From positions 1 through 64,000 of the forward strand of contig NZ_CANMAA010000011.1 of NCBI RefSeq assembly GCF_947495735.1: a stretch of DNA of 64,000 nt, written 5' to 3'. Source of the stretch: an uncultured Pseudokineococcus sp. GTDB lineage: Bacteria; Actinomycetota; Actinomycetes; Actinomycetales; Quadrisphaeraceae. A program made the position numbers and the translations under genes. Numbering within the stretch: position 1 is the stretch's first letter; the number at the start of each line of letters is the position of its first letter. A model generated the notes under the pieces. It was not told where the DNA came from, ran no database searches, and worked only from the letters and a program-made list of their open reading frames with translations. This document shows, piece by piece, positions 1,854 through 58,918 of this stretch.

Positions 1854-3988
1854 GCGGCGCCTCCCCCGGCGGCCCGGGCGAGCCCCGGTCCGGGTCGGGC
1901 GGGCGCCGGCGCCGACCGGGCCCGCTGCCGCGGGAGGCGGACCGTGACGACGGTGCCGACGCCCTCCCGCGAGCGCAGGCGCAGGTCGCCGTCGTGGTGC
2001 TCCACGATGCTCCGGACGATGAGCAGGCCCAGCCCCGTGCCGGGGACGGCCGCGTCGACCGCGTTGGTCGCGCGGAAGAAGCGCCTGAAGAGGCGCTCCT
2101 GGTCGCGCTCGGGGATGCCCATCCCCGTGTCCTCGACCTCCACGACGACGTCGGCCGCGCGGGGGCGCACCGCGAGGCGGACGACGCCGCCGCGCGGGGT
2201 GAACTTCACGCCGTTGGTGAGCAGGTTGAGCAGCACCCGGTCCAGCTGCACCGGGTCGCCGGCCACGACGAGGCCCTCACCGGCGGCCGGCGGCGCGTCC
2301 ACGACCAGCTCCACCCCCGCGGCGTCGGCGGCGGGCTGCACCGACGCCACGGCCGCGCCGACGACCTCGTGCAGCAGGACGTCCCGGTAGGTCGCCCGGA
2401 AGGCGCCGGACTCGATCCGGGAGAGGGTCAGCAGGTCCTCGATGAGCGAGCGCAGGCGCTGGGTGTTGCGCTCGACCACGGCGAGCATCCGGTCCGCCTC
2501 GAGCGGGATCTCCCCGCCGTCGCCGTCGCGCAGGAGCTCGAGGTAGCCGGAGATGCTCGTGAGCGGGGTGCGCAGCTCGTGGGACACCGCGGACAGGAAG
2601 TCGGTCTTCGTCCGGTCCAGCTCGCGCAGCTGCTCGACCAGCTCCTCCTGCTGCCGGTACAGCCGCGCCAGCACGAGCGCGCGCCCGAGGTCGGCGGCGA
2701 CCGACCGGGTGAGGGCGACCTCCCCGTCGGTCCACCGGCGGGGACCGGAGTGCACGGCCACCGCCAGGGAGCCGAGAGCCGTCTCGCCGGCACCGACGGG
2801 GAGCACGAGCAGCGCCGTGGCGCCCGTCCCCGCGGCGAAGGCCCGCAGGTGGTCGGCGACGTCCTCCCCGCCGACGTCGCCCCGCCCGGCCGCGCCCTCG
2901 CGCAGGTCGGCCTCCAGGTCGTCGACGCGCACCGCGCCGCCGAGGTCGTGGAGCGACTGCAGCCAGCTGGCGACCCCCTGGCCCCGGAGCGCGGGGAGGA
3001 CGGGCGCCTCGAGCCCGGGCGTCGCCCACCGAGCCGTCGACGGGCCGAGGCCGGCGTCGTCCAGCAGCCGCACCCACGCCCGGTCGGCGGCGACTCCCCG
3101 GCCGAGGAGCGTCACCGCCCGGGTGAGCGACTCCTCGGCGTCCAGCTGGTCGCGGATGCGGCGACCGATCCCGGCGCCGAGCTCGGCCAGGCGCGCGGCC
3201 TCGGCGCGCTCGGCGCGCAGCCGGTCGGACTCGTCGGCGAGGTGGTTGACCGACCGCGCGACGGCGCGCACCTCGCACGGGCCCCGCCGGTCGTCGGACC
3301 GCGCGGCGTGGTCCCCGGCGGCGAGGCCGCCCAGGACGGTGACGACGTCGTCCAGGGGGCCGACGAGGCTGCCGCGGAGCCGTCGGGCGGCGACGAGCGA
3401 GACCCCCAGCGCGACGGCCAGCGCGAGCGCGCTGCCCACGAGCGCGGCGGTCCGGACGGCGGACGCGCGGGCCCGGGCGGCCGCGTCCCGGTCGGCCAGC
3501 AGGTCGTCCAGGCGCCCGCCGACCGCCCGGAAGCTGTCGAAGATCTCCTTGTTCCGCTGCGTGAGCTCGTCGGAGACCTCGACCTCGCCGGGCGCCATCG
3601 CCGCGACCGGATCCCCGTAGACGGCGAACCACCGGTCGGCGATGGCGACCTGCTCCTCCACGAGGGCGCGCTCGTCCGGCCGCGCGAGCGCCAGGGCCCG
3701 CTCCACGTGCTGCGGGAACGCGGCGCGCCCCTCCTCGTAGGGCTCGAGGAACGACCGCTGCTGCGCGAGCCGGTACCCGCGGACGCCGGTCTCCGCGTTC
3801 GCCATCTCGAGGAGCATCGCGGTGCTGGACGCCTCCATCAGCTGCAGGCGCTCCTCCTGGTCGTGGGCGCGCCCCGTCGCGACCAGCCCGCCGACGCCGG
3901 CGCCGCCGACGAGCACGAGGACGGCGACGAGGACCAGGAAGGTCCGGGCCAGGCGTCGGGAGAGGGACGGCTCCTCCACGGCGGTCAC
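1850..3988 (-). CDS. Membrane sensor histidine kinase, CHASE3-HAMP-GAF-HisKA-HATPase
   Basis: A 712-residue kinase starting at a GTG that overlaps the glycosyltransferase stop (GTGA). TM1 at about residues 13-35 is followed by an extracytoplasmic CHASE3-type sensor with the family signature NAETGVRGYRL and a downstream FLEPY. TM2 is near 185-207, then a HAMP linker and a GAF domain. The HisKA motif SHELRTPL has its His near residue 470. The HATPase shows NLLTNGVKF, EDTGMGIP and GTGLGLLIV. Two kinases, one membrane-bound and one soluble, in one operon suggest that external and internal cues feed the same receivers. The reading frame continues upstream inside the glycosyltransferase gene, but that extension looks like out-of-frame noise, so the GTG at 3988 is preferred. 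Confidence 0.92.
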   Translation of the reverse strand: MTAVEEPSLSRRLARTFLVLVAVLVLVGGAGVGGLVATGRAHDQEERLQLMEASSTAMLLEMANAETGVRGYRLAQQRSFLEPYEEGRAAFPQHVERALALARPDERALVEEQVAIADRWFAVYGDPVAAMAPGEVEVSDELTQRNKEIFDSFRAVGGRLDDLLADRDAAARARASAVRTAALVGSALALAVALGVSLVAARRLRGSLVGPLDDVVTVLGGLAAGDHAARSDDRRGPCEVRAVARSVNHLADESDRLRAERAEAARLAELGAGIGRRIRDQLDAEESLTRAVTLLGRGVAADRAWVRLLDDAGLGPSTARWATPGLEAPVLPALRGQGVASWLQSLHDLGGAVRVDDLEADLREGAAGRGDVGGEDVADHLRAFAAGTGATALLVLPVGAGETALGSLAVAVHSGPRRWTDGEVALTRSVAADLGRALVLARLYRQQEELVEQLRELDRTKTDFLSAVSHELRTPLTSISGYLELLRDGDGGEIPLEADRMLAVVERNTQRLRSLIEDLLTLSRIESGAFRATYRDVLLHEVVGAAVASVQPAADAAGVELVVDAPPAAGEGLVVAGDPVQLDRVLLNLLTNGVKFTPRGGVVRLAVRPRAADVVVEVEDTGMGIPERDQERLFRRFFRATNAVDAAVPGTGLGLLIVRSIVEHHDGDLRLRSREGVGTVVTVRLPRQRARSAPAPARPGPGLARAAGGGAA

Positions 3989-43178: not shown

Positions 43179-43269
43179 GGGACTCCCTGCGCAGGAGGAC
43201 GACGCGCGGCGCCGTCCTCGGACGGGGCACGGTGAGACGGGCGTCTCCCGCGCTTGACGCCGTCGGCGC

Positions 43270-43287
43270 GCACCTGCGGGCAGGTGC
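43270..43287 (-). promoter_or_regulatory. Hairpin in the riboswitch expression platform
   Basis: GCACCTGC and GCAGGTGC form an 18-nt perfect palindromic stem about 15 nt past the SAM-IV aptamer on the minus strand. It is a candidate attenuator or anti-sequestor element. A CCGGA/TCCGG stem lies just before it. No T-tract follows. Confidence 0.5.
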
Positions 43288-43301
43288 TCCGGACGGCGTC
43301 C

Positions 43302-43380
43302 GGGTCATCACCCGGGGCACCCCACCGCGAGAGAGGGTTGCCGGCCAGCCACCCGGGGGTTAGCGCTGGCACTCGTGACC
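43302..43380 (-). ncRNA. SAM-IV riboswitch
   Basis: Read on the minus strand, the segment opens GGTCACGAGTGCCAGCG, contains GCTGGCCGGCAACCCTC and GCGGTGGGGTGCCCCGGG, and closes with TGATGACC pairing back to GGTCA. These blocks, in this order and spacing, are the conserved core of the actinobacterial SAM-IV aptamer: P1, the GCCAGC/GCTGGC stem, the CCGGCAACC joining region and the pseudoknot-forming GGTGGGGTGCC. It binds S-adenosylmethionine and should lower expression of the downstream core-MetE gene when SAM is plentiful. The downstream hairpin at 43270-43287 may be part of the switch. Confidence 0.93.
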
Positions 43381-54672: not shown

Positions 54673-55992
54673 ATGACCAGCTCGCCGACGGAACCGCCCG
54701 ACGACCTCCTCGCCCGGCACCAGAGGGTGGCGCCCGCGTGGACGGGGCTGTACTACGACGAGCCGCTGGAGCTCGTGAGCGGCTCGGGCAACCGCGTCAC
54801 CGACAGCCGCGGGCGCACCTACCTGGACTTCTTCGGCGGCATCCTCACGAACATGGTCGGCTACGACCTGCCCGCGCTGCGCGAGGCCGTCACCGAGCAG
54901 ATCGGCCGCGGGGTCGTGCACACCTCGACGCTGTACCTGCTGCGCAGCCAGGTCGAGCTGGCCGAGAAGATCGCGCGGCTCTCGCGCATCCCCGACGCGA
55001 AGGTGTTCTTCACCAGCTCGGGCACCGAGGCCAACGAGGTGGCCCTGCTGCTCGCCATGACGCACCGCCGCTCCAACCAGGTGCTGGCGCTGCGCAACAG
55101 CTACCACGGGCGCAGCTTCGCCACCGTGGGCGTCACGGGGAACCGCTCGTGGTCGGCGTCCAGCTTCTCCCCGCTGCAGACCACCTACCTGCAGGGCGGC
55201 TACCGGTTCCGCAGCAGCTTCCGGCACCTCGACGACGACGCCTACGTCGACGCGTGCGTGGCCGACCTGCGCGAGCTCCTCGACGTGGCGACGGCGGGCG
55301 ACGTCGCGTGCCTGATCGCCGAGCCCGTGCAGGGCGTCGGCGGCTTCGCCGTCCCGCCGCCGCGGCTGCTCGCGGCGTACAAGGAGGTGCTCGACGAGAC
55401 CGGCGTCCTGTTCATCAGCGACGAGGTGCAGACCGCCTGGGGCCGCACCGGTCGCTCCTTCTTCGGCATCGAGGCCTCCGGCGTCGTGCCCGACGTGATG
55501 ACGTTCGCCAAGGGCCTGGCCGGGGGGTACGCCATCGGCGGCGTCGTCGCGCGGGGCGACGTCATGGACTGCCTGGGGGCGCAGGGCATCTCGACGTTCG
55601 GCGGCAACCCGGTCGCGACGGCCGCCGCCAACGCGGTCCTCGACCACGTGCTCGACCACGACCTGCAGGGCAACGCCGCGCGGCTCGGCGCGGTGCTGCA
55701 CGAGGGGCTGCAGCGCGCGGCCGACCGGCTGCCGCTCGTCGCCGAGGTCCGCGGCGTCGGCCTCATGGCGGGCCTGGAGCTGGTGGGCCCCGACGGCTAC
55801 GCCCCGCACCCCGCCGCGGCCGCCGCCGTGCTCGAGGAGACGAGGGCCCGCGGCCTGCTCGTCGGCAAGGGCGGCCTGCACGGCAACGTCATCCGCGTCG
55901 CCCCGCCGCTGACCCTCACCGCCGACGAGGCCGAGGAGGGCCTCGGCCTGCTCGTCGACGCCCTCGAGGCCGTCGACGCCGCCCAGCGCTGA
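54673..55992 (+). CDS. Class III aminotransferase, AGXT2/GABA-transaminase-like
   Basis: A 439-residue PLP enzyme. GTEANEVALLLAM and SYHGRSFATVGVTG bind PLP phosphate. Other signatures are AEPVQGVGGF and ISDEVQTAWGRTG, and the Schiff-base Lys is in TFAKGLAGGYAIGG. The similarity is to alanine-glyoxylate transaminase 2 and omega-amino acid transaminases. GGGGAGGGA four bases before the ATG fixes the start. Its stop is followed directly by a 41-bp-period repeat array. The amino donor is not certain. Confidence 0.92.
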   Translation: MTSSPTEPPDDLLARHQRVAPAWTGLYYDEPLELVSGSGNRVTDSRGRTYLDFFGGILTNMVGYDLPALREAVTEQIGRGVVHTSTLYLLRSQVELAEKIARLSRIPDAKVFFTSSGTEANEVALLLAMTHRRSNQVLALRNSYHGRSFATVGVTGNRSWSASSFSPLQTTYLQGGYRFRSSFRHLDDDAYVDACVADLRELLDVATAGDVACLIAEPVQGVGGFAVPPPRLLAAYKEVLDETGVLFISDEVQTAWGRTGRSFFGIEASGVVPDVMTFAKGLAGGYAIGGVVARGDVMDCLGAQGISTFGGNPVATAAANAVLDHVLDHDLQGNAARLGAVLHEGLQRAADRLPLVAEVRGVGLMAGLELVGPDGYAPHPAAAAAVLEETRARGLLVGKGGLHGNVIRVAPPLTLTADEAEEGLGLLVDALEAVDAAQR

Positions 55993-56196
55993 CCGCACCT
56001 CGTCGACACCCTGCCGCCCGAGGGCCCCTTCCCCCGCACTCTGTCGACACCCCGCCGCCCCGAGCCGCCCTTCCCCGCACTTCGTCGGCACCTTGCCGCC
56101 CCGAGGCGCCCTCCCCGGCACTTCGTCGGCACCTTGCCGCCGGGACGCCTCTTCTCGGGCACTTCGTCGGCACCTTGCCGCCCCGGTGCCCGCGTC
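55993..56196 (+). repeat. 41-bp-period tandem array, five copies
   Basis: Copies start at about 55993, 56034, 56075, 56115 and 56156. Each contains GCACTTCGTCGGCACCTTG or a close variant, followed by a C-rich spacer. Copies 3-5 are nearly identical at the core; 1 and 2 have GTCGACACC. The same core recurs in the opposite orientation downstream of the nucleoside hydrolase gene. Confidence 0.92.
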
Positions 56197-56215
56197 GTGC
56201 GGCACGGTGGGGCGC

Positions 56216-57220
56216 GTGGACGACGTCGACGAGCCCCGGCCGCTGCCTCCCCTTACCGCCGCGACGGCGGAGGACCCGGTGCCGGTGGTCCTCGACTGCG
56301 ACCCGGGCGTTGACGACGCGGTCGCGCTGCTGCTCGCGCTCGCCGCCCCCGAGCTCGACGTCCGCGCGGTGACGACGGTGGCGGGCAACGCCTCGCTCGA
56401 CCTGATCACGGCCAACGCCGCGCGGGTGCTCGACCTCGCCGGCGCTCGAGGGGACCTCCCGCTCGCCCGGGGCGCGGCCGGACCGCTCGGGCGGGCGCGG
56501 CGCGAGCGCGACGCCGACGTCCACGGCCCGGGGGCGCTCGGAGGGCTCGACCTGCCGCCCTCCCGGCGCGCGGTGGCCGAGGCGTCGGCGGTCGACGTCG
56601 TCGCCCGCGCCGCCGCGGAGCGGCCCGGCGAGCTGGTGCTGGTGGCGCTGGGCCCGCTGACGACGGTCGCGGCGCTGCTGGCGCTGCACCCGGAGTCGGC
56701 GGACCACCTGCGCGAGGTCGTGCTCATGGGCGGCGCGGCGTTCTGCGAGGGCAACAGCAGCCCGACGACCGAGTTCAACCTGCGCTGCGACCCCGACGCC
56801 GCCCGCCGGGTCACCGAGTCCGGCGTCCCGCTGCGCGTCGTCCCGCTCGACGCGACCCAGCGCGCGCTCGTCGGCCCGGAGACCACCGCGCCGCTGCTCG
56901 CCTCCCGCGACGCACGAGGACGCGCGGTCGGCCAGCTGCTGCAGCACATCTCGACGCAGCGGCGCGACGACGACGGGCTGGCGGCCGCCGCCGTCCACGA
57001 CGCCCTCGCCGTGGCCGCCGTCCTCGACCCGACGCTGTGCACGTGGGTCGAGGGCGGCGTCCGGGTGGAGACGAGCGGTGAGCTCACCCGCGGCGAGCTC
57101 GTCGTCGACACCACGGCGGGCACCGACGGCGCCCGGACGGACTGGGCGCGGACGGCGCGCGTCGCCGTGGACGCCGACGCCGGCGGCCTCGGCCGCCTCC
57201 TGGTCGACCGCCTCGCCTGA
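56216..57220 (+). CDS. Nucleoside hydrolase, inosine-uridine preferring type
   Basis: A 334-residue N-ribohydrolase. The calcium-binding N-terminal motif DCDPGVDDAVALLLAL is intact, with TTVAGN next, the catalytic-region stretch LVALGPLTTVA and MGGAAFCEGNSSPTTEFN, and the leaving-group His in AAVHDALAVAAV. It splits nucleosides to ribose and base for salvage. GTG at 56216 or an in-frame GTG nine bases upstream; a longer frame would translate repeat DNA and is unlikely. The gene is bracketed by two arrays of the same 41-bp repeat family. Confidence 0.9.
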   Translation: MDDVDEPRPLPPLTAATAEDPVPVVLDCDPGVDDAVALLLALAAPELDVRAVTTVAGNASLDLITANAARVLDLAGARGDLPLARGAAGPLGRARRERDADVHGPGALGGLDLPPSRRAVAEASAVDVVARAAAERPGELVLVALGPLTTVAALLALHPESADHLREVVLMGGAAFCEGNSSPTTEFNLRCDPDAARRVTESGVPLRVVPLDATQRALVGPETTAPLLASRDARGRAVGQLLQHISTQRRDDDGLAAAAVHDALAVAAVLDPTLCTWVEGGVRVETSGELTRGELVVDTTAGTDGARTDWARTARVAVDADAGGLGRLLVDRLA

Positions 57221-57280
57221 CCGACGTCCTCACCCGGGCACCGGTCGCGCGCGGGGGCAAGGGACAGCTCACCCCTCCCC

Positions 57281-57434
57281 CCGCACTCTGTCGGCATGAC
57301 GTCGCACGACCCGGGCCGGCGACGTCACGGTGACGACAGAGTGCGGGAGAAGAAGGCCGTCCACGTCACGGTGACGACAGAGTGCGGGAAAGGGACGTCA
57401 CCCACGGCAGGGTGACGACAGAGTGCGGGGAGGG
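57281..57434. repeat. Inverted copies of the 41-bp-period repeat
   Basis: CGACAGAGTGCGGG occurs at 57334, 57375 and 57416, exactly 41 bp apart, in reverse orientation to the upstream array. One forward copy (CCGCACTCTGTCGGCATGAC) starts at 57281. Forward and reverse copies can pair as a long imperfect hairpin between the convergent nucleoside hydrolase and GH1 genes. Confidence 0.92.
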
Positions 57435-57484: not shown

Positions 57485-58918
57485 TCAGCGAGCGGGCAGG
57501 GCGTTGTCCGCCGCGACGCCCGAGTACCAGCGGGCGCTGTCCTTGGGCGTGCGGACCTGGGTGTCGTAGTCCACGTGCACGACGCCGAAGCGCTTGCTGT
57601 AGCCGTAGGCCCACTCGAAGTTGTCGAGCAGCGACCACACGAAGTAGCCCCTGACCGGCGCACCGCCCTCGACGGCGTCGCGCACCGCGGCGAGGTGGTC
57701 GTGCAGGTAGGCGATGCGGTCGTCGTCGTGGACGACCCCGTCCTCGCCGACGACGTCGGGGGCCGCCATGCCGTTCTCGGTCACGTACAGGTCGACGCCC
57801 GGGGCCTCCTGCGCCAGGCGCAGCAGCAGCTCGGTCATGCCGCGGGGGTCGATGGCCCAGCCCATCTCGGTGCGCGGCCCGGGCAGCTCGACGAACTCGA
57901 CGTCCTCGCACGCCACCCACGGCGACCCCGTGCCGTCCCCGTGCCCGTCGGCGCTCTCCTTGGCGCCCTCACCGCTCCAGCGGCGGACCACCGTCGGCGA
58001 GTAGTAGTTCAGGCCCACGGCGTCCAGCGGCTGGCGGATGATCGCCGTGTCGCCGTCCTGCACGAAGGACCAGTCGGTGACGCCCGCGGTGTCCTCGAGC
58101 ACGTCGGCGGGGTAGGCGCCGCGCAGCATCGGGCCGAGGAACACCCGGTTCTGCAGGCCGTCGACGCGGCGCGCGGCGTCCCGGTCGCCCTCGGAGGACT
58201 CGTCCTCGGGGCGGAACCACCCGAGGTTGAGGGTGACGGCCACCTCGGCCCCCGGCGCGTGCTCGCGGACCGCCTGCGCCGCGAGGCCGTGCGCGAGGTT
58301 GAGGTGGTGCACCGCGGCGAGCGCGGCGGCGGGCTCGGTGCGCCCCGGGGCGTGGACGCCGGCCGCGTAGCCGAGGTAGGCGGCGCACCAGGGCTCGTTG
58401 AGCGTGATGAAGGTGCGCACCCTGTCGCCCAGCGCGCCCGCGACGACGGCGGCGTACTCGCCGAAGCGCTCCGCGGTGCGCCGGTCGGTCCAGCCGCCGA
58501 CGTCCTCGAGCGCCTGCGGCAGGTCCCAGTGGTAGAGCGTCACGGCGGGGGTGATCCCGGCGGCGACGAGCTCGTCGACGAGGGCCGAGTAGAAGTCGAG
58601 GCCGCGCTGCTCCACCGAGCCGAGCGCGTCGGCGCTCACCTGGGGGGTGATCCGCGGCCACGCCACCGAGAAACGGTAGGACTGCAGCCCCAGCTCCTTC
58701 ATGAGCGCGACGTCCTCGCGGAACCGGTGGAAGTGGTCGTCGGCGACGTCACCGGTGTCCCCGTCGAGCGTCTTGCCCGGGGTGCGGGAGAACGTGTCCC
58801 AGATCGAGGGCGTGCGGCCGCCCTCGTCCACCGCCCCCTCGATCTGGTAGCTCGCGGTGGCGGACCCCCACAGGAAGCCGTCGGGGAAGGCGGTGGTGTC
58901 GGACGTCGTGGCAGGCAC
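57485..58918 (-). CDS. GH1 beta-glycosidase
   Basis: A 477-residue family 1 glycoside hydrolase. It starts [19 protein letters not shown]. The acid/base Glu is in TLNEPW near 174 and the nucleophile Glu in YVTENGMA near 379. No signal peptide, so it acts on imported oligosaccharides, releasing glucose or mannose-type residues from the non-reducing end. GTG start behind AAGGAG. It follows the secreted GH5 gene by 85 bp, matching an extracellular endo-enzyme plus intracellular exo-enzyme pair. Confidence 0.94.

What the first reader, a model, noticed from the sequence alone, without database searches (positions are those of the whole stretch)
55993..57434. 41-bp repeat family on both sides of a nucleoside hydrolase gene, in opposite orientation
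Five forward copies lie upstream; one forward and three reverse copies lie downstream. Both arrays keep an exact or near-exact 41-bp period and the core GCACT-YY-GTCG-N-CACC. Same family, same period and inverted placement suggest a defined element (protein-binding array, REP/MIRU-like repeat or recombination substrate) more than random slippage. Inversion of the gene between the arrays is conceivable.
Basis: partly seen in the sequence, partly recalled or inferred. Interest (0 to 1): 0.65.

Follow-up and report, generated by a model that had tools for sequence, protein, structure and literature searches.

The report
Nuclease-linked phased palindrome arrays
The 41-bp repeats beside this gene belong to a genome-wide family of short palindromes spaced every 41-42 bp, and each such family has its own DNA-cutting enzyme gene lying between two inverted arrays of the same palindrome, which looks like a previously unreported counterpart of the known REP/RAYT repeat-and-enzyme systems.

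Summary
The repeats are real and not local. The genome (Pseudokineococcus) carries about 36 intergenic arrays of the same ~24-bp quasi-palindrome, SSGCACTNYGTCGRCAMNNYGCCG. Centre-to-centre spacing is 41 or 42 bp in 97% of neighbours, also across orientation flips, and flips run "+ then -" in 30 of 31 cases. Congeners have the same geometry at the same gene boundaries, sometimes with a different palindrome: at the window's own two boundaries one congener has family B instead of A. Several unrelated-looking palindrome families share this lattice. For families A, B, C, E and two more, a nuclease gene lies between inverted arrays of that same family (+...+ gene -...-, 9 of 9 such genes in the genus). 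The nuclease has an AbiEi-like N-terminus and a Vsr/EDxHD-type C-terminus (DUF559/MTES_1575) with an intact active-site motif. The whole module is absent at orthologous sites in some relatives. Best reading: the arrays are binding sites of this nuclease family, and gene-less arrays (the window's included) are its dispersed satellites, a REPtron-like system with an unrelated enzyme. RAYT (Y1 transposase) is absent. Binding, cleavage and mobility are inferred. Inversion of the nucleoside hydrolase gene is not supported.

The parts
55993..56180 (+). Array 1: five forward family-A dyads, 20-bp cores starting at 55995, 56036, 56077, 56118, 56159; begins right after the aminotransferase stop codon (55990-55992)
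57281..57304 (+). Array 2, forward family-A dyad (core 57283-57302)
57323..57428 (-). Array 2, three reverse family-A dyads (cores 57325-57344, 57366-57385, 57407-57426), centre spacing 42,41,41 counting from the forward copy
54727..55992 (+). Flanking gene: aminotransferase by sequence appearance (no family search succeeded for it); its 3' end carries array 1 (family A here, family B in congeners G003 and G001)
56207..57220 (+). Gene between the arrays: inosine-uridine nucleoside hydrolase (PF01156, E 1.5e-81); not itself part of the element
57485..58918 (-). Flanking gene: glycosyl hydrolase family 1 (PF00232), convergent with the nucleoside hydrolase

Best explanation
The arrays are dispersed, gene-less satellites of a nuclease-repeat module. 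The autonomous module consists of a ~290-residue protein gene (AbiEi-like N-terminal DNA-binding region plus a Vsr/EDxHD-type PD-(D/E)XK nuclease domain, Pfam MTES_1575/DUF559) bracketed by inverted arrays of one 24-bp quasi-palindrome at 41-42-bp spacing. Shown: arrays, lattice, polarity rule, bracketing of the nuclease genes by arrays of one family, orthologous nucleases with the same family, presence/absence of whole modules, conserved catalytic residues. Inferred: (1) the N-terminal region binds the 24-bp dyad as AbiEi antitoxins bind 23-bp repeats; (2) protomers on neighbouring dyads contact each other, which fixes the 41/42-bp pitch (four helical turns; two dyads span about 65 bp, close to the ~60-bp dimer target of the EDxHD enzyme I-Bth0305I); (3) cleavage within arrays, repaired by recombination, adds, removes and converts units in register and occasionally seeds or replaces arrays elsewhere; (4) the arrays at the module's own ends also autoregulate it. 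In this genome the family-A nuclease gene lies at C1:570413-571279, next to a biotin carboxylase (accA3-like) gene; the window's two arrays are satellites of it.
For: Family-wide lattice: 143 of 148 neighbours at 41/42 bp, including 16 of 16 flips; the same in three congeners and for family C. Within arrays, core columns GCAC, GTCG, CA, GC differ in 0-3% (one column 6%) of neighbouring units against 29% for spacers. RNAalifold finds no consensus hairpin, which favours a DNA-binding protein. Nuclease genes bracketed by inverted arrays of one family: A (L273), A-like (L267), B (L285, L294), C (L264, L265), E (L292, L295), I (L272), 9 of 9; inverted-flank score >=17 in 32 of 47 MTES_1575 genes against 0 of 111 random genes, p about 2.5e-22. 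Nuclease orthologs at 94-96% identity carry the same repeat family. Species with the C nuclease have many C copies (G003 97, G001 39); species without have 1 each. Module absent at the orthologous C site in the window's genome (157 vs 1762 bp) and at the accA3 site in G004 (33 bp). Active-site columns E, D, ExD, H, D kept in the 36-45 proteins aligned. N-terminus matches AbiEi models in 20 of 36 (best 6.5e-25); C-terminus matches 3hrl, the EDxHD homing enzyme 3r3p and, weakly, Vsr. AbiEi proteins bind 23-bp inverted repeats (PMC7319586).
Against: No binding, cleavage or movement has been shown. Arrays stay at the same gene boundaries between species, so movement is rare or the arrays are maintained for another reason. 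Families A and D occur in G003, and family A in G001, without a matching nuclease found there. The direct AbiEi match is absent for the A-type nuclease itself and rests on profile homology with relatives. Outside the taxonomic family only 2-3 of 9 small MTES_1575 genes tested show inverted flanks, so the link is not universal. Family-A arrays are enriched between convergent genes (18 of 34 against 36 of 205), which a purely selfish model explains only through tolerance.
Confidence: 0.7

Rival explanations
1. The arrays are host-beneficial 3'-end elements (terminators, transcription insulators or supercoil sinks, BIME-like) bound by a host protein, and the nuclease genes simply sit among them.
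For: Family A is enriched between convergent genes (18/34 vs 36/205, p 2.6e-5) and rare between divergent ones; arrays often start right after stop codons; positions are kept between species.
Against: Family C shows no such preference: of 25 arrays about 5 lie between convergent genes. Sequence families differ between species at the same place. No RNA consensus structure and fold scores vary from z -4.6 to +0.1. Does not explain 9 of 9 nuclease genes bracketed by matching, inverted arrays.
Confidence: 0.13
2. The nuclease is a self-regulating defence or toxin-antitoxin-type protein; flanking arrays are its operators and the dispersed arrays are titration sites or self markers.
For: AbiEi-like N-terminus; AbiEi antitoxins autoregulate through tandem 23-bp inverted repeats (PMC7319586).
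Against: No abiEii-type partner gene was noticed next to the modules; arrays also lie downstream of the nuclease gene, and tens of arrays lie far from it.
Confidence: 0.12
3. Ordinary tandem repeats (VNTR/MIRU-like satellites) made by replication slippage, without a cognate protein.
For: Units within an array resemble their neighbours; copy number differs between species.
Against: Unrelated sequence families share the 41/42-bp pitch; pitch and polarity hold across inverted neighbours; core columns stay invariant while spacers diverge.
Confidence: 0.04

Closest known systems
REP/REPIN with RAYT (TnpA_REP, 'REPtron'; PMC3116915, PMC8266576, PMC3733652)
   Same: Short extragenic quasi-palindromes, species-specific families, many dispersed gene-less copies, an enzyme gene flanked by its own family, inverted pairs, enzyme and repeat co-varying, positions mostly downstream of genes.
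   Different: Enzyme is a Vsr/EDxHD-type nuclease, not a Y1 HuH transposase (PF01797 absent in all four genomes); units form phased arrays at 41-42 bp; no GTAG/CGTC-tagged single-strand hairpin; dyads behave like double-stranded protein sites.
EDxHD homing endonucleases (I-Bth0305I; PMC3943268)
   Same: C-terminal nuclease domain of the same type with E, D, H, D residues; sequence match to 3r3p; long dimeric target of nearly 60 bp.
   Different: Free-standing, not intron-borne; AbiEi-like N-terminus; flanked by arrays of repeats rather than inserted in a cut site.
AbiEi antitoxins and their operators (PMC7319586)
   Same: N-terminal region; ~23-bp repeats in inverted pairs and tandem groups next to the gene.
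   Different: Nuclease domain instead of a toxin partner; repeats at a 41-42-bp pitch on both sides of the gene and at tens of distant sites.
BIME / REP clusters of enterobacteria and MIRU/VNTR (from general knowledge)
   Same: Intergenic repeat clusters with variable copy number, often at 3' ends.
   Different: Single fixed pitch kept across inverted neighbours and across unrelated sequence families; a nuclease gene bracketed by the same repeats.

Membership tests
REP/RAYT (REPtron) | Cognate Y1/HuH transposase (PF01797) in the genome | tested here: not met
   No match in G000-G003; control search rings in E. coli and four others
REP/RAYT (REPtron) | Enzyme gene flanked by repeats of its own family | tested here: met
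   Met with a different enzyme: 9 of 9 nuclease genes of the 41-bp type in the genus
REP/RAYT (REPtron) | Palindrome forming a conserved single-strand hairpin with a GTAG/CGTC tag | tested here: not met
   RNAalifold predicts no consensus pair for family A; no such conserved tag in the column frequencies
EDxHD/Vsr-type nucleases | Conserved active-site residues of the Vsr/PD-(D/E)XK type | tested here: met
   E192, D223, E234, D236, H240, D249 invariant or nearly so; PDB sequence matches 3hrl and 3r3p, Vsr weaker
EDxHD/Vsr-type nucleases | Site-specific DNA cleavage | not testable with these tools
   needs an enzyme assay
AbiEi-type regulators | Homology to the AbiEi DNA-binding antitoxin | tested here: inconclusive
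   Significant in 20 of 36 relatives (best 6.5e-25); A-type nuclease only through profile homology (hhalign E 6e-20)
AbiE toxin-antitoxin system | Adjacent AbiEii (DUF1814) toxin gene | not tested
   No systematic search; none noticed among the neighbours read
CRISPR | Repeats separated by unrelated spacers, with cas genes | not tested
   Considered and dropped: spacers are 17-18 bp and often copied between units; no cas search was made

The most novel reading that the evidence does not exclude
A new class of selfish or domesticated DNA system: an AbiEi-EDxHD fusion nuclease that binds and cuts phased palindrome arrays and drives their in-register amplification, replacement and spread, with each paralog keeping its own palindrome family; convergent with, but unrelated to, RAYT/REP.
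Probability: 0.45. Interest if true: 0.9.

Novelty: new variant of a known kind. Interest (0 to 1): 0.8.

Why it matters
Many short intergenic palindromes in bacteria have no known enzyme partner; the REP/RAYT pair is the main exception. This links phased palindrome arrays to a different, widespread but functionally unassigned nuclease family (DUF559/MTES_1575), gives matched enzyme-site pairs (A, B, C, E, I) for direct binding and cutting tests, and offers a natural set of related nucleases whose flanking palindrome has changed at one conserved chromosomal locus.

Tried and rejected
Gene inversion between the arrays: order and orientation unchanged in relatives. RAYT partner: absent. RNA hairpins or terminators as the main explanation: no consensus structure, inconsistent fold scores. 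Rfam: only a SAM-IV riboswitch elsewhere in the window. Strict sense orientation downstream of genes: first suggested by convergent loci, but several codirectional and divergent arrays break it and family C shows none. Higher sequence homogeneity of family A where its nuclease is present: not seen. Plasmids and viral contigs: no matches. Matches in a Nitrosomonadales contig and in G005 are unrelated or chance. Random sampling of 400 kb of the own genome found no 41-bp array at all, so arrays are unevenly spread; dnaA lies on C5, where no array was found, but with 59 contigs no chromosome map was possible. Structure prediction of the nuclease was not run because its loci are not of the kinds the tool lists as allowed.

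Full report
OBSERVATION. The two arrays are present as described: five forward units at 55993-56180 and one forward plus three reverse units at 57281-57428, period 41. They flank a nucleoside hydrolase gene (PF01156) lying between an aminotransferase-like gene and a convergent family-1 glycosidase gene.

GENOME-WIDE FAMILY. The window is contig C11 of a 4.2-Mb draft genome; the pattern scan of named genomes finds the tandem motif in Pseudokineococcus. A tandem pair pattern matches 89 times in this genome, 0 times as reversed control, 1, 3 and 11 times in the three congeners, and in one other relative, a chance hit. A sequence model gives 177 matches. I read 36 arrays with two or more units.

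ANATOMY. The unit is a ~24-bp quasi-palindrome, consensus SSGCACTNYGTCGRCAMNNYGCCG, then a 17-18-bp spacer. Dyad centres are 41 or 42 bp apart in 143 of 148 neighbouring pairs, including 16 of 16 pairs of opposite orientation. Flips are "+ then -" in 15 of 16 cases here and 15 of 15 in congeners. Between neighbouring units, the columns GCAC, GTCG, CA and GC differ in about 0-3% of pairs (one column 6%), spacers in 29%. So spacer sequence drifts while core and spacing are held. RNAalifold gives no consensus structure.

CONTEXT. Of 34 arrays with both neighbours called, 18 lie between convergent genes, against 36 of 205 random intergenic regions (Fisher p 2.6e-5), and 3 between divergent genes. 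Gene calls are from my own codon-bias caller. At least ten array positions are shared with congeners at the same gene boundary while copy number and orientation make-up differ, for example ++++++ here, +-- in G003 and +- in G001.

DIFFERENT SEQUENCES, SAME GEOMETRY. Other ~24-bp quasi-palindromes sit on the same 41/42-bp lattice in congeners: families B, C, D, E and more. Family C has 97 copies in G003, 39 in G001, 1 each in G000 and G002, none in other genera, 0 in controls; its flips are 16 of 16 "+ then -". At the window's own two gene boundaries, G003 carries family B (three forward after the aminotransferase gene, two reverse before the glycosidase gene) and G001 carries B at the first and A at the second.

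THE NUCLEASE. Three loci showed a gene between inverted arrays of one family; all three genes are homologous, and the one tested matches REase_MTES_1575 / DUF559. A search for this family's genes and a look at their flanks showed the rule: + array, nuclease gene, - array, with one palindrome family per nuclease, for A, A-like, B (2 species), C (2), E (2) and I, 9 of 9 genes of this type in the genus. The genus has further MTES_1575 genes of other subfamilies, some with differently spaced or no clear flanking repeats. An inverted-flank score of 17 or more occurs in 32 of 47 such genes in the taxonomic family and in 0 of 111 random genes (p about 2.5e-22). Orthologous nucleases share their repeat family: C 95%, B 94%, E 96% identity. 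In related genera flanking arrays occur at 41-42-bp pitch (L280, L309; there the dyads are near-perfect palindromes, so orientation cannot be read) or at 32-33-bp pitch in inverted order (L304, L276). Outside the taxonomic family only a minority of tested genes show it.

ENZYME ARCHITECTURE. The C-terminal domain keeps E192, D223, E234-x-D236, H240 and D249 and matches 3hrl, the EDxHD homing enzyme 3r3p and, weakly, Vsr. The N-terminal region matches AbiEi models in 20 of 36 proteins (Pfam AbiEi_4 and AbiEi_1 in 7 and 6). The A-type protein lacks a direct AbiEi match but its N-terminus is homologous to those that have one (hhalign E 6e-20). AbiEi antitoxins bind 23-bp repeats arranged as inverted pairs and tandem groups (PMC7319586).

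MODULE GAIN AND LOSS, AND CHANGE OF SPECIFICITY. The C module is absent in the window's genome at the orthologous site (157 bp between neighbours against 1762 bp). Next to a biotin carboxylase (accA3-like) gene a nuclease module is present in four Pseudokineococcus species and in G006, and absent in G004 (33 bp). At this one locus the flanking palindrome is A, A-like, B, B and CCGCACTCTCCCAGGAGAGTGCGG. The A-type module of the window's genome is this one (C1:570413-571279).

INTERPRETATION. I conclude that the arrays are binding sites of this nuclease family and that gene-less arrays are dispersed satellites, by analogy with REPtrons. Shown are the repeats, lattice, polarity, association, co-variation and presence/absence. 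Binding, cutting, spread and the dimer-on-neighbouring-dyads explanation of the pitch are inferred. RAYT is absent, so this is not a member of REP/RAYT. In the papers searched none names AbiEi and DUF559 together, and the four that name MTES_1575 do not concern such repeats by title and abstract; the library is partial.

The element idea holds; the inversion idea does not.

Noticed in passing
window 43245-43380 (-): SAM-IV riboswitch aptamer, 88 bits.
   Followed up: no
L154 about 3150-3317 (G001:C68): The nucleoside hydrolase gene is reduced to remnants in G001 (P. marinus) between a family-A and a family-B array.
   Followed up: partly
L226 11740-11900 (G002:C1): Another 41-bp tandem repeat (TCCAGGAACCGTCCCGGCGACGAACAGGCGCCCGTTCGCGC) of no assigned family.
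   Followed up: no
L304 and L276 (other genus of the family, G004 and G009): Nuclease genes bracketed by inverted arrays at a 32-33-bp pitch (CCCGCGACGATCACGCAC...), suggesting that the pitch goes with the nuclease subfamily.
   Followed up: partly
L277, L293, L297 (family J): Nuclease genes flanked by CGAGTCCGACGTCG units with 19/40-bp spacings instead of a regular lattice.
   Followed up: no
family-A copies in G001 and G003 (L154-L166, L175-L180): They mostly read ACTTCGT at the half-site, as in family B, whereas this genome mostly has ACTSTGT; possibly adapted to the B-type nuclease of those species.
   Followed up: no
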